From Ignavibacteria bacterium (GTDB taxonomy: Bacteria; Bacteroidota; Ignavibacteria; Tepidaquicellales; Tepidaquicellaceae): a stretch of 64,000 bases of DNA. Each line of letters opens with the position of its first letter. Position 1 is the stretch's first letter. Positions 44,542 through 49,946 of this stretch are shown here, piece by piece. The stretch is taken from positions 62,001-126,000 of the forward strand of contig DATAJP010000003.1 of assembly GCA_036262055.1 (NCBI GenBank), given 5' to 3'. The notes beneath the pieces were generated by a model. It did not search any database. It saw only the letters and a program-made list of their open reading frames with translations, and was not told where the DNA came from. Made by a program: the position numbers and the translations under genes.

Positions 44542-46227
44542 ATGGATGATAAGACAAAGCTGGATATTTTAAAAGCACATTATTTTATAAATCGAGATCG
44601 AACGCGCGAATACGCCGCGACTGATTATCTGGTTCAATATGAAAATATATGCCAGCTTTTAAAAGAGCGTTTAACAGAACAAGCAAGCGATGAACATCTT
44701 GTTTTTTATGATGACAAAGGAAACAAAACTTCATTCACTTATGGAGAATTTATTTCAAGAGCATTTCAGATTGCAAATTATTTGCTGGAAAATGGAATTG
44801 GCAGAGAAGACAGAATTGCAACTTTTTCGCACAATCATTCCGATACGGTTATTTTATATTTTGCGTGCTGTAGCATAGGCGCAGTTATCGTTCCTGTAAA
44901 TGTAAGTGAAGAGTCCGAACGTGTTCAATATATTTTTGACAACTCAAACACGAAAATTGTATTTACACGCGATGAATATTTACCGAAACTTTCATTGCTT
45001 GACCATTCAAAGTTTGATACGGTTTGTTTTAACCTTTTTGATTATTCTAAATTTTCAAAAACACTTGAGCTTGATTATAAATTCGATAAAGAAACCGAAT
45101 CAATGATTGTTTATACATCAGGAACGACAGGTAACCCCAAAGGCGTGGTGCTTACGCAATACAATTTGATGGTTGATGCAAAGTACATTGCCGAATGGCA
45201 CGGAATTTCTAAAAACGACACAATGATGTGTGTGCTTCCGATTCATCATGTTAATGGAACTGTTGTAACCATAATGACCTCAATGTATGCAGGTGCAAGA
45301 TTGATTTTGAATCAGAAATTTCAGACCGACACATTCTTGAAACGCATTGCAGATGAAAAAGTAAAAGTTGTCAGTGTTGTTCCGACATTGCTGGCTTTTA
45401 TGCTAAACTCAGATGAAGACTCAAAAAAATATGATTTAAAAAATTTCTCACATATTATCTGTGGAGCAGGTCCATTGACATGCGAGCTTGCAAAAAAATT
45501 TGAAGATAAATTTGGTTTGCGTATTGTTCACGGATATGGCTTATCTGAGACGACTTGTTATTCCTGTTTTATTCCCGCAAATCTTGAACAAGACCAGCAT
45601 TTGAAGTGGCAGAATGATTTTGGTTTTCCGTCAATTGGTCTGGCAATCGATTGCAATGAAATGGATATCCAGGATGACAAGGGAAATTCGCTTGGAGAAA
45701 ATGAAAAAGGTGAAATCGTAATCCGCGGACATAATGTTATGAAATATTATTTCGATAACGATGAAGTTAATAGAAAAACTTTTGAATTCGAATGGTTCAG
45801 AAGCGGTGATGAGGGATTTTATAAATATGATGACCTTGGAGAGAAATATTTTTTCATAACGGGTAGAATCAAGGAGCTTATCATAAGAGGTGGAGTGAAT
45901 ATTTCACCGCTTGAAATCGACGAAGTGCTTTCATCGATAGATTGCGTTCAGTCAGGAATTGCAGTGGGGTTTGAAAATGACTGGTACGGTGAAGAAGTCG
46001 GTGCGCTTGTGTTGTTAAAAGAAGAGTTCAAGAACATGAATGACACCGATATAAAAAATAAAATCATGTCTGAATGCCATTCAAAACTTCCTTATTATAA
46101 AGCTCCGAAAGTAGTTGTGTTTTCAGAATCCATTCCCGTAACATCAACAGGGAAATACCAAAGAAACAAAGTAAAACATTTATTTTCGGATTTTAAAGCT
46201 CAGCAATTTTCAAATAAAAAAGGTTAG
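44542..46227 (+). CDS. AMP-dependent acyl-CoA synthetase/ligase
   Basis: A 561-residue class I adenylate-forming enzyme that activates a carboxylic acid with ATP and usually forms a CoA thioester. Motifs in order: IVYTSGTTGNPKGVVLT (A3, about residues 189-205), HHVNGTVVTIM (A4), GYGLSETT (A5, about 332), RSGDEGF (A7), and RIKELIIRGGVNISP (A8). The catalytic A10 Lys is in STGKYQRNKV near the end. The substrate is unknown; the sequence resembles long-chain or aryl-CoA ligases. Its stop overlaps the convergent PPK1-like gene by 4 bases. Confidence 0.9.
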   Translation: MDDKTKLDILKAHYFINRDRTREYAATDYLVQYENICQLLKERLTEQASDEHLVFYDDKGNKTSFTYGEFISRAFQIANYLLENGIGREDRIATFSHNHSDTVILYFACCSIGAVIVPVNVSEESERVQYIFDNSNTKIVFTRDEYLPKLSLLDHSKFDTVCFNLFDYSKFSKTLELDYKFDKETESMIVYTSGTTGNPKGVVLTQYNLMVDAKYIAEWHGISKNDTMMCVLPIHHVNGTVVTIMTSMYAGARLILNQKFQTDTFLKRIADEKVKVVSVVPTLLAFMLNSDEDSKKYDLKNFSHIICGAGPLTCELAKKFEDKFGLRIVHGYGLSETTCYSCFIPANLEQDQHLKWQNDFGFPSIGLAIDCNEMDIQDDKGNSLGENEKGEIVIRGHNVMKYYFDNDEVNRKTFEFEWFRSGDEGFYKYDDLGEKYFFITGRIKELIIRGGVNISPLEIDEVLSSIDCVQSGIAVGFENDWYGEEVGALVLLKEEFKNMNDTDIKNKIMSECHSKLPYYKAPKVVVFSESIPVTSTGKYQRNKVKHLFSDFKAQQFSNKKG

Positions 46228-48101
46228 CTTTCTAAAGTTTTCAAATAATTAAAAACTGCCGTTTGAGTGCTTTTGCTGTAAAGATTAATAATTTCAACAA
46301 GAGCCGTTCTCAAGTTTGTTTGCTTCACAGGAAAAGCCAATCCGTTTTTTCCCGATAAATCTTCTTTAGTCCAATCAATAGAAGAAATATAAATTACCGG
46401 TTCTCCGTCATTGTAAAAAACAAAAATCCTTGAATGCTCATGGACAGTATTAATTAAATATTTAATCTGAATATTTTGATTTAACCAGTGTTCGTTTTCC
46501 AATAAACAGCTTTCGGAAATCAGTAATTTTATTTTAACGCCTGCTGCGCTTGCATCTGAAATCAAACCGATTAATTTTTTATCCTCTAACTTGTTCAATT
46601 TCAACATGATAAAAGCATCTTTTCCATTCTCGGCATTCATGATTTCGTTTTCAATTAAGCTTGATAAACGTTTTTTTATATTTAACTTTGAAACTAACAG
46701 CTCATCAAATTCAAATCCTTTTGTTCCAAGCTCAAGAAAATTGAAAAAATAATTTAAATCGATTGAAAGAACTTCATCAGAAGTTAGTAACCCCATATCA
46801 GTTGCGTAATTATTTTTTTCTGAGAAATTTTTTGTTGAAAAATATATATAATTTTTTTCACCCTCGTTCTCGCGTCGTTTTATCAGAACAGCTTCGGTAT
46901 CAATTTTTAAATCCGATGCGTTTATAATTATGGTTATTCCGGATTCTCTGAAATCATTCAAAAAATCTCCATCACTACCATCATCTGCAAAAATAATTAC
47001 ACGTTTCCCTTTCTTTACGGCATTTATTAACGAAACGATTATATTTGGATTTTGAGTAAGCGGTGATTGAGTCAATTTAATTTCAGTAACAAACGGGTCG
47101 TTTGAAATTTGTTTAAATAGATTTATAATATTCTCATTTGAATGATATGGAAAATAAAAAAGAATATCATGTTTGGATACTGTCTTAAAAATATTTGAAG
47201 ATTCAAGCAATGTATTATGAGTTAAAGCTTTAACTTCATCTTCCGGTGAAGAAAATCTATTCCCTAAAAACGAAATTAACTCGATCACTTTCGGATAAAA
47301 CAACTCTGGAAATACATTACTCTTTTTTATTGTGAACAATTTACGGATTTCTTTTGGCAGTTTATTATTACCGGAGAATAATATCCATTCGTTATTGATT
47401 TCACTATTTAAACGCAAAGTAAATGAATAAATTTCATTTATTTTTCTATCAGGCAGAATTTTTTGAATGTTTGATTCAATTATTTCATCGGTAGATATAA
47501 TTTCTGTAGCTTCAATAGACAAATTAATAAATTTTGGAATAGAAGAAGGGATTTCTATCAAAACATAATCATACTTTACTTTTTCATCTTTCTCAATTGC
47601 CTCATTTATAATCTCTGATTCCGGATTTTCATAATTACTAATTGAATTTTCATTAGTATTTTCAATTTTTAATACAAAATATTTCTGACCGTCTTTGAAA
47701 AAGGATTGAATGCTGTCTTCATTTATAGCAAATGGCATTAAGGCAGATTTAATATTTTTATCAAAAAATTCATTACTTAGCTTGAGTTGATTTTCACTTA
47801 GCGGATTTAAACCTTCAACAAAAATATTCTGCTTTTTGAAATTAGGAACAATAACATCGTTATAAATACTTAAAAATTCTTCATCTAATTTTGTTAATTT
47901 TTTATAAAGTTTTCTGAAATTTTTTAATTTATTATTGCCTGATGTTCTATCAAATACAAATTCATCAAATTCTTCCGAAAACATTTTTATAAACTTCAAT
48001 TTTTTCTCTAAGGAAGTGTTCTCGTCCTTAATGTGAAACAAAATCTCTGTGAAAAAAATAAACTTGCCTTCGGTTTTTGATATGTATCGTTTCTTACTCA
48101 C
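46224..48101 (-). CDS. Degenerate PPK1-like protein (pseudo-polyphosphate kinase)
   Basis: A 625-residue protein with the full polyphosphate kinase 1 layout: helical N-domain (KFIFFTEILFHIKDENTSLEKKLKFIKMFSEEFDEFVF), PHP-like middle and phospholipase-D-like C1/C2 domains. The block FYFPYHSNENIINLFKQISNDPFVTEIKLTQ is recognisable. The autophosphorylated His region, KTH in active PPK1, reads LKIDTEA here (Asp401), the next TGN motif is replaced by STKNFSEKNN, and the Arg-containing ITLYR equivalent reads KLTQSP. The second catalytic-region His (HEHSRIF, His556) is kept. So polyphosphate synthesis by the normal route is unlikely. It follows sixA by 9 nt in the same operon. Confidence 0.82.
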   Translation of the reverse strand: MSKKRYISKTEGKFIFFTEILFHIKDENTSLEKKLKFIKMFSEEFDEFVFDRTSGNNKLKNFRKLYKKLTKLDEEFLSIYNDVIVPNFKKQNIFVEGLNPLSENQLKLSNEFFDKNIKSALMPFAINEDSIQSFFKDGQKYFVLKIENTNENSISNYENPESEIINEAIEKDEKVKYDYVLIEIPSSIPKFINLSIEATEIISTDEIIESNIQKILPDRKINEIYSFTLRLNSEINNEWILFSGNNKLPKEIRKLFTIKKSNVFPELFYPKVIELISFLGNRFSSPEDEVKALTHNTLLESSNIFKTVSKHDILFYFPYHSNENIINLFKQISNDPFVTEIKLTQSPLTQNPNIIVSLINAVKKGKRVIIFADDGSDGDFLNDFRESGITIIINASDLKIDTEAVLIKRRENEGEKNYIYFSTKNFSEKNNYATDMGLLTSDEVLSIDLNYFFNFLELGTKGFEFDELLVSKLNIKKRLSSLIENEIMNAENGKDAFIMLKLNKLEDKKLIGLISDASAAGVKIKLLISESCLLENEHWLNQNIQIKYLINTVHEHSRIFVFYNDGEPVIYISSIDWTKEDLSGKNGLAFPVKQTNLRTALVEIINLYSKSTQTAVFNYLKTLES

Positions 48102-48110
48102 AATTATTTA

Positions 48111-48605
48111 TTATAAATGTTTTTTAGGGTACTCGAAAAATCCAAATTTTCCTTTTCCAAAATCAATTTCGTTCCAACTGTTTGTCTCGAATTTAATTCC
48201 ATACATTGCGCAAGTTGGCATGTTATCTATGGAATGGTTATTAATTTTATTGCAGAACGAAGTTAGCTCCGGATTATGCCCGAATAAAAGAACCGTGTTT
48301 AAATTATTATTCAAGCTTTTTAATAAATCAAGAATCGTCTGAGGTGAGCACATATAAAGCTGTTCTTCAATCTGAATTTCATCCTTGCTGTAGTTAAATT
48401 CTTCAGCAAAAAATTCAGCAGTAGTTAAAGCTCTTTTAGCATAGCTTGAAATTATTAAGTCCGGTTTGGAAATAAGTTTTGAAAGAACTTTTGCCATAAC
48501 AGGCGCGGACTTCAAACCGCGCTTGTTTAAAGGACGTTCGTAATCATCAAGCTGGGAATTATCCCAGCTTGATTTTGCGTGTCTTATGATTACTAAAGTT
48601 TTAAT
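48111..48605 (-). CDS. sixA: SixA-type phosphohistidine phosphatase, ATT start
   Basis: A 164-residue histidine phosphatase of the SixA type. Read in frame from 48605 the protein starts (M)KTLVIIRHAKSSWDNSQLDD with the catalytic RHxK motif, then LNKRG, SSYAKRALTTAEF and the second His in FGHNPELTSF. Only an ATT codon (48603-48605) is available in the right place, as a stop lies four codons upstream and no ATG, GTG or TTG lies before RHAK. A TTG at 48515 would cut off the active site. The natural length (SixA about 161) fits the ATT start. It sits between carbonic anhydrase and PPK1-like genes with short spacers. Confidence 0.8.
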   Translation of the reverse strand: MKTLVIIRHAKSSWDNSQLDDYERPLNKRGLKSAPVMAKVLSKLISKPDLIISSYAKRALTTAEFFAEEFNYSKDEIQIEEQLYMCSPQTILDLLKSLNNNLNTVLLFGHNPELTSFCNKINNHSIDNMPTCAMYGIKFETNSWNEIDFGKGKFGFFEYPKKHL

Positions 48606-48617
48606 TGAAGTAAGTTA

Positions 48618-49217
48618 TTAATCGATGAATGTTACTATACCGGATTCCACATTATACATTGCTCCTGCAATTTTTATTTCACCGGCTTTTTCTAAATCTG
48701 AAATTATTCTGCTGGAGTTTCTCAGATGCTCAATGCTGTTTTTTATGTTAAGCTCTGTAATGCTTGTTAAATCATTTTTATTTTTCGAAGCATCAACCGC
48801 CGGGGAAATTTTTTCAAGGATCCCGGTTACTTTCCCCATCTCCACCTTGTTCATGGCAGATTCAACAGCTATGCATTTTGTATGTCCCAATATTAAAATT
48901 AATTTTACTCCCGTAACCTCGCAGGCAAATTCCATGCTTCCGGTTATGTCATCATTGATAATATTGCCGGCAACGCCTGTAACAAACACTTCGCCGACGC
49001 CTATATCAAAGATAACTTCCGGCAAAACACGCGAATCCATGCACCTGTGGATTATTGCCCATGGAGCCGGATTTTGAGCAGTCGCGATAATCTCATTATG
49101 ATATTCGCGTCCGGAATTTGTTTTGGTTATGAATCTTTGATTGCCTTCTTTCAGCATCTCAATCACTTTATCAGGAGTTAATGATTTTTGGAATTCTTTT
49201 GTCTTTGGATAAAACAT
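48618..49217 (-). CDS. Beta-carbonic anhydrase, cytoplasmic
   Basis: A 199-residue beta-class carbonic anhydrase interconverting CO2 and bicarbonate. The zinc-site and catalytic motifs are seen: CMDSR (HRCMDSRVLPE) and HTKC (LILGHTKCIAVES), with GVGEVFVTGVAGNIINDDITGSMEFA between. It has no signal peptide, so it is cytoplasmic. HTKCIA differs from the common HTxCGA. Paralogue of the next gene, 27 nt apart. Operon with the following sixA and PPK1-like genes (12-nt spacer to sixA). Confidence 0.92.
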   Translation of the reverse strand: MFYPKTKEFQKSLTPDKVIEMLKEGNQRFITKTNSGREYHNEIIATAQNPAPWAIIHRCMDSRVLPEVIFDIGVGEVFVTGVAGNIINDDITGSMEFACEVTGVKLILILGHTKCIAVESAMNKVEMGKVTGILEKISPAVDASKNKNDLTSITELNIKNSIEHLRNSSRIISDLEKAGEIKIAGAMYNVESGIVTFID

Positions 49218-49244
49218 TTACAGTAGTTTCAGTTAGTTTATAAA

Positions 49245-49946
49245 TTAATTATCTAAGAATTTTACCTCACCTGTATGAACGTCATACATTGCTCCGACAA
49301 TTTTTATTTGTCCGCTTGCTTCTAAATCGGTAAGTATCTGGCTACCGTTTTTTATGCTTTGAATCACGTCTTTTACGTTTTGAACTGCTACGTCATCTAC
49401 AAACTTTTTATTTTTCGAGGTTAAATCACCGGTTTTTGTCACCGCTTTAACGGTATTAACAGCCGGGTCAATTTTTTGAACGACATTGGTTATGTTTCCC
49501 AATACGACATTATCAATTGCTCCTTTTACCGCTCCGCATTCAGTGTGTCCCATTACCACAATCAGTTTAGTTCCAACAACTGCGCATCCATATTCCATAC
49601 TCCCGATTACGTCCACATCCAATATGTTTCCTGCAATACCTGTTGTAAAAATATCACCAATATTCAAATCAAAAAGTATTTCAGGAGCAACACGGGAGTC
49701 CATACATCTGTGAACTACAGCCCAGGGATATTGGCCTTGCGAAGTTTCTTGAACGGCAGTGTGATATTCGCGGTTCGAACTAAGATTATTTATAAAAAGC
49801 TGATTGCCATATTTAAGCATTTCAATAGCCATATCCGGAGTTATTGACTGTTGAAATTCTTTTGTGTTAGGATAAATTTTATCTTCCTGTGCATTGGCGA
49901 AAGAAAAAAAACCAAAAAATAAAATTAGGATAATAATAGTTTTCAT
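49245..49946 (-). CDS. Beta-carbonic anhydrase, exported
   Basis: A 233-residue beta-carbonic anhydrase. The core is the same as its neighbour: HRCMDSRVAPEILFDLNIGDIFTTGIAGNILDVDVIGSMEYGCAVVG, and GHTECGAVKGAID with the typical zinc-binding His-Cys pair. It has an added signal peptide (MKTIIILILFFGFFSFANAQ), so it should act in the periplasm. The pair of a cytoplasmic and a periplasmic enzyme in one operon suggests CO2/bicarbonate exchange across the membrane. First gene of the operon, with about 170 nt of upstream spacer. Confidence 0.92.
   Translation of the reverse strand: MKTIIILILFFGFFSFANAQEDKIYPNTKEFQQSITPDMAIEMLKYGNQLFINNLSSNREYHTAVQETSQGQYPWAVVHRCMDSRVAPEILFDLNIGDIFTTGIAGNILDVDVIGSMEYGCAVVGTKLIVVMGHTECGAVKGAIDNVVLGNITNVVQKIDPAVNTVKAVTKTGDLTSKNKKFVDDVAVQNVKDVIQSIKNGSQILTDLEASGQIKIVGAMYDVHTGEVKFLDN

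What the first reader, a model, noticed from the sequence alone, without database searches (positions are those of the whole stretch)
46224..48605. PPK1-fold protein without its catalytic His, in an operon with a phosphohistidine phosphatase
The protein keeps the PPK1 domain layout and the HEHSRIF block, but the autophosphorylated His (KTH in active PPK1) is Asp401 and the surrounding TGN and Arg motifs are changed. A gene for SixA, which removes phosphate from histidines, lies directly upstream. The pair may form a regulatory or polyphosphate-sensing unit in place of a kinase, possibly a scaffold or binding protein.
Basis: partly seen in the sequence, partly recalled or inferred. Interest (0 to 1): 0.6.

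Follow-up and report, generated by a model that had tools for sequence, protein, structure and literature searches.

The report
PPK1-like protein lacking its active site
One bacterial genome keeps a full-length but almost certainly dead copy of a polyphosphate-making enzyme next to a phosphatase gene, while its relatives keep the same gene pair with a working enzyme, so this looks like a former enzyme reused as a non-catalytic protein or on its way out.

Summary
46224-48101(-) encodes a 625-aa PPK1 homologue whose autophosphorylation His (E. coli His435) is Asp401. Arg375, Arg405, Tyr468, Arg564 and Arg621 are lost too; His592/Arg594 remain. A SixA-like gene lies 9 bases upstream. In 107 homologous sequences (about 96 distinct loci) all nine marker residues are kept; only the window copy departs. 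The sixA-ppk1 pair is common and normally carries an intact PPK1, so the pair is not a unit replacing a kinase. This genome also has an intact canonical PPK1, a PPK2 and two PPX/GppA proteins. The window branch is about ten times the median length while SixA evolves normally; the frame stays open where neutral drift would give 20-28 stops. Two usual neighbours, an HD-PycTM protein and a class III cyclase, are missing from this genome but present in all five other family genomes with the sixA-type PPK1. Best reading: a PPK1 pseudoenzyme kept for its fold; a partner role with SixA is inferred. PolyP sensing is disfavoured. Known from one genome only.

The parts
46224..48101 (-). PPK1 homologue without the active site (pseudo-PPK1), 625 aa, GTG start
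   Evidence: Pfam PF13090, PF17941, PF02503 over cut-off; residue alignment; AlphaFold2 model pLDDT 74.5, Z 44.7 to 1xdo over 526 aligned residues
46899..46901 (-). Codon of Asp401, at the place of the autophosphorylated His435 of E. coli PPK1
   Evidence: alignment; codon GAT in AAA ATT GAT ACC; His in 107 of 107 homologous sequences
46428..46442 (-). Retained HEHSR block (His556 = E. coli His592, Arg558 = Arg594)
48111..48605 (-). SixA-like histidine phosphatase (branch 1), catalytic motifs intact, probable ATT start
   Evidence: PF00300 37.7 bits; below the NCBIfam sixA cut-off, 46.9 vs 74.5; start-codon comparison
48618..49217 (-). Beta-carbonic anhydrase, co-directional neighbour; one copy in close relatives, two here
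   Evidence: PF00484; synteny
49245..49946 (-). Second beta-carbonic anhydrase
   Evidence: PF00484

Best explanation
The gene is the vertical descendant, by synteny and tree, of a second, SixA-linked polyphosphate kinase 1 that relatives still carry in active form. In this lineage it lost the nucleotide-, phosphate- and polyP-handling residues of both C-terminal domains and the N-terminal block, so it should neither autophosphorylate nor make polyphosphate (strong inference from sequence). The reading frame stayed intact and the scaffold segments stayed conserved through a long accelerated branch, so it is most likely still made as a folded, non-catalytic protein (a pseudoenzyme) translated with SixA (inferred). 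Most likely mechanism (inference, about 0.3 on its own): in the ancestral pair SixA removed the phosphate from the PPK1 phosphohistidine intermediate, as E. coli SixA does for NPr and Ndk. Here the ex-substrate serves as a binding partner that places or restrains SixA, or joins the intact PPK1 in mixed oligomers.
For: Loss of six of nine marker residues, including the nucleophile, unique among 108 sequences covering these columns. Flanking genes shared with G003 and G017, whose copies are intact. End branch 3.4 vs median 0.34 for PPK1 but SixA 0.62 vs median 0.49. Neutral drift to the same loss at invariant sites gives 20-28 stops, minimum 9; observed 0. Divergence is uneven: identity to family homologues collapsed in catalytic segments (0.33 vs 0.62 among themselves; 0.37 vs 0.74) but not at 301-345 (0.42 vs 0.45) and 446-525 (0.47 vs 0.53). 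Hydrophobic core columns kept 88%, basic columns 52%. SixA acts on pHis of phosphotransfer proteins (PMC7948535, PMC12934123; abstracts, passages).
Against: Single genome: no second pseudo-copy was found, so selection could not be measured by dN/dS. GC content of the gene (27.9%) is close to intergenic DNA (27.1%), and the HD-PycTM and cyclase neighbours are gone, which also fits a decaying module. The 230-289 region is low-confidence in the model. Nothing shows binding to SixA or to PPK1. The start of SixA is a weak codon.
Confidence: 0.6

Rival explanations
1. A relic: the whole HD-PycTM / sixA / ppk1 / cyclase module is being lost in this lineage and the ppk1 copy is a relaxed gene with no present function, still open by accident or under only weak constraint.
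For: HD-PycTM, cyclase and the Omp85 neighbour absent from the genome; 23 of the 29 family genomes lack this second PPK1; GC of the gene equals intergenic GC; several in-frame deletions.
Against: No stop or frameshift although neutral drift of this extent predicts 20-28 stops; scaffold segments keep near-normal identity; SixA evolves normally.
Confidence: 0.25
2. A polyP- or phosphate-binding sensor or scaffold.
For: PPK1 fold predicted; half of the C2 site (HEHSR, Ser574, Asp576) kept.
Against: Conserved basic columns lost or turned acidic, the block with Arg405 deleted, net charge -12; a positively charged tunnel is the proposed hallmark of polyP binding (PMC4400040).
Confidence: 0.08
3. A neofunctionalised enzyme that uses the kept C2 half-site (His556, Arg558) or Asp401 as nucleophile, like a phospholipase-D-fold hydrolase.
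For: Kept His556, Arg558, Asn425, Asp435, Lys501, Asn503, Asp576 are invariant in homologues; the C-terminal half has the PLD fold.
Against: Phosphate-binding arginines on the C1 side are gone; the kept residues may be structural.
Confidence: 0.06
4. An active polyphosphate kinase with an altered site.
For: Pfam PPK domains over cut-off.
Against: Nucleophile, R375, R405, R564 and R621 all lost; score far under the PPK1 equivalog cut-off, 272 vs 466.
Confidence: 0.01

Closest known systems
Polyphosphate kinase 1 (PPK1; TIGR03705, E. coli 1xdo, P. gingivalis 2o8r)
   Same: Domain order, predicted fold, HEHSR block, 27-31% identity in the structural alignment
   Different: Autophosphorylation His, R375, R405, Y468, R564, R621 and the N-terminal block lost; about 70 residues shorter
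SixA-linked PPK1 of Ignavibacteria (e.g. UBA6667, L055)
   Same: Same gene pair, shared flanking genes, orthologous by synteny
   Different: Relatives keep all catalytic residues; the closest have HD-PycTM upstream and a class III cyclase downstream
SixA phosphohistidine phosphatase acting on NPr and Ndk in E. coli (PMC7948535, PMC12934123)
   Same: Histidine phosphatase branch 1; possible action on a pHis intermediate of the partner
   Different: Here the partner has no phosphorylatable catalytic His; the SixA-like protein is under the curated SixA cut-off
PPK1 and MutT1 (Nudix plus histidine phosphatase domain) as gene neighbours in mycobacteria (from memory, not tested here)
   Same: PPK1 gene beside a histidine phosphatase domain
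   Different: Separate SixA-like protein without Nudix; the PPK1 here is inactive

Membership tests
PPK1 enzyme (polyphosphate kinase 1) | Pfam PPK domains | tested here: met
   PF13090, PF17941, PF02503 over cut-off; PF13089 just under (21.4 vs 23.8)
PPK1 enzyme (polyphosphate kinase 1) | Equivalog score TIGR03705 | tested here: not met
   272.3 vs 465.85 bits; family homologue L055 702.6, own canonical PPK1 908
PPK1 enzyme (polyphosphate kinase 1) | Autophosphorylated His (E. coli His435) | tested here: not met
   Asp401; His in 107 of 107 homologous sequences covering the column
PPK1 enzyme (polyphosphate kinase 1) | Second His (E. coli His592) | tested here: met
   His556 in HEHSR
PPK1 enzyme (polyphosphate kinase 1) | Arg375, Arg405, Arg564, Arg621 of the phosphate site | tested here: not met
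   Pro347, deleted, Ser529, Lys585
PPK1 enzyme (polyphosphate kinase 1) | PPK1 fold | tested here: met
   Predicted model only: Z 44.7 to 1xdo over 526 residues, rmsd 15.9 over the whole chain (domain placement differs or is unsure); the alignment given to the predictor consists of PPK1s
PPK1 enzyme (polyphosphate kinase 1) | PolyP synthesis from ATP | not testable with these tools
   needs an assay
SixA phosphohistidine phosphatase | Histidine phosphatase domain with RHx and GHNPE motifs | tested here: met
   PF00300 37.7 bits; motifs seen
SixA phosphohistidine phosphatase | Equivalog score TIGR00249 | tested here: not met
   46.9 vs 74.5 bits; family homologue 40.1; therefore called SixA-like
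SixA phosphohistidine phosphatase | Phosphohistidine phosphatase activity | not testable with these tools
   needs an assay
Pseudogene | Stops or frameshifts in the frame | tested here: not met
   625 open codons

The most novel reading that the evidence does not exclude
A bona fide PPK1 pseudoenzyme that works as a SixA-bound regulatory or docking subunit, controlling phosphohistidine levels or the activity of the intact PPK1 in trans.
Probability: 0.25. Interest if true: 0.55.

Novelty: new variant of a known kind. Interest (0 to 1): 0.35.

Why it matters
In the held library of open papers I found no description of a catalytically dead PPK1, although that library lacks most subscription journals. 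If it is made and binds SixA or the active PPK1, it would be a non-catalytic regulator in polyphosphate metabolism. The wider sixA-ppk1 pair, with active PPK1, suggests that SixA may act on the PPK1 phosphohistidine, which is directly testable.

Tried and rejected
Single-protein scan of genome contigs for a second pseudo-copy: nothing. Sequencing or assembly error rejected: the gene differs at hundreds of positions in frame. Wrong alignment at His435 rejected: the flanking LKI and NF blocks align without gaps. Literature searches for inactive PPK1 paralogues and for PPK1 with HD-PycTM gave no paper; the search for SixA with polyphosphate kinase gave one paper, on a eukaryotic PPIP5K phosphatase. 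Charge loss alone is not decisive: basic retention (0.52) is near the neutral expectation (0.57), and a test of basic against other invariant residues gave p = 0.06.

Full report
Observation. The reading frame 46224-48101 (-) is a 625-residue PPK1 homologue (Pfam PPK domains). Against E. coli PPK1 the nucleophile His435 is Asp401. Arg375 is Pro347, the block carrying Arg405 is deleted, Tyr468 is Ala433, Arg564 is Ser529 and Arg621 is Lys585, while His592 and Arg594 are kept as His556 and Arg558. The N-terminal NRELSWLSFN block and the YHNFxDFF stretch of the middle domain are also lost. A SixA-like gene ends 9 bases upstream. The roles of the E. coli residues are established knowledge of PPK1 (Zhu et al. 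2005, from memory); His435 and His592 are named as active-site histidines in PMC6416319.

Is it unusual? In 107 homologous sequences covering the marker columns (about 96 distinct loci, because some were fetched twice), all nine marker positions are intact; the window copy is the only exception. Of 78 columns that are at least 98% invariant, the window keeps 36, has 5 gaps and 37 changes; all but one of the 106 full-length sequences keep at least 74, and the exception keeps 62 and lies at a contig edge. The NCBIfam PPK1 model scores the window protein 272 bits against a cut-off of 466, while the family homologue scores 703 and the genome's own canonical PPK1 908.

Genome context. The genome has an intact canonical PPK1, a PPK2 and two PPX/GppA proteins, so polyP metabolism does not depend on this gene. 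Named relatives place the organism among Ignavibacteria; this is an inference, since the genome itself is unnamed.

The gene pair. sixA directly upstream of ppk1 is common in Ignavibacteria and is also seen in Calditrichota and some Bacteroidota, with an intact PPK1. In the closest genomes, G003 (same contig as UBA6667, L055) and G017, the order is sorting-domain protein, carbonic anhydrase, HD-PycTM, sixA, ppk1, followed by a convergent class III cyclase (in G017 the two halves lie on two contigs). The window keeps the sorting-domain protein, two carbonic anhydrases, sixA and ppk1, but HD-PycTM, the cyclase and the Omp85 gene are not found anywhere in its genome (genome about 95% complete). 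Both HD-PycTM and a cyclase are found in all five other family genomes that have the sixA-type PPK1, which serve as positive controls for those searches. Loss of catalysis therefore goes with loss of these neighbours; with one genome this is only an association.

Evolution. The PPK1 tree gives the window an end branch of 3.4 against a median of 0.34; its exact placement is unsure because of that length. The SixA branch is ordinary, 0.62 against a median of 0.49, and groups with the same family. Simulated neutral drift from the relative's gene to the same loss at invariant sites yields 20-28 stop codons on average and never fewer than 9; the real frame has none. Identity to family homologues has collapsed in catalytic segments but is near normal at 301-345 and 446-525 (the segments were chosen after seeing the alignment). 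Hydrophobic columns are kept at 88%, at the top of the neutral range (mean about 0.79, maximum 0.87-0.88). These facts favour a gene kept for a folded product over a freely decaying one. The gene's low GC, equal to intergenic DNA, and the eroded locus leave the relic reading open.

Structure. An AlphaFold2 model built with 35 homologues has mean pLDDT 74.5, poor at 151-173 and 230-289. It matches PPK1 crystal structures best (Z 44.7 to 1xdo, 526 residues aligned; the rmsd of about 16 shows that domain placement differs or is unsure), and its C-terminal half also matches the phospholipase D fold. The alignment consists of PPK1s, so the fold is partly built in.

Function. E. coli SixA removes phosphate from the histidines of NPr and Ndk (PMC7948535, PMC12934123). 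By analogy the ancestral SixA may reset the PPK1 phosphohistidine; this has not been shown. In the window the histidine is gone, so the protein can no longer be that substrate. A non-catalytic partner of SixA or of the intact PPK1 is the mechanism I judge most likely (about 0.3 on its own). PolyP sensing is disfavoured by loss of conserved basic positions, six of which became acidic, given that a positive tunnel is the proposed mark of polyP-binding proteins (PMC4400040). That argument is limited, because basic retention is near the neutral expectation.

Verdict. A real, single-lineage PPK1 pseudoenzyme, already paired with SixA before it lost catalysis; function unproven.

Noticed in passing
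window 48603-48605 (-); L037, L055, L057, L043: sixA has no ATG/GTG/TTG start before its RHAK motif. The usual start position is ATT here, and ATT or ATC in the four other genomes of the family examined, but ATG, GTG or TTG in nearly all others: a conserved AUU/AUC start, as known (from memory) for infC and pcnB.
   Followed up: partly
L035:4837-9797 and similar loci: In Ignavibacteria the sixA-ppk1 pair often lies beside an HD-domain PycTM (Pycsar effector-type) membrane protein and a class III nucleotide cyclase: a possible cyclic nucleotide and polyP signalling module, with no paper found.
   Followed up: partly
window 48618-49946 (-): Two adjacent beta-carbonic anhydrase genes, about 50% identical, where close relatives have one; the second stands in the place of HD-PycTM.
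   Followed up: no
L138:1213-1719 (-), G000:C2: A second small SixA-like histidine phosphatase in the same genome, beside an ABC transporter ATPase and a MiaB-like gene.
   Followed up: no
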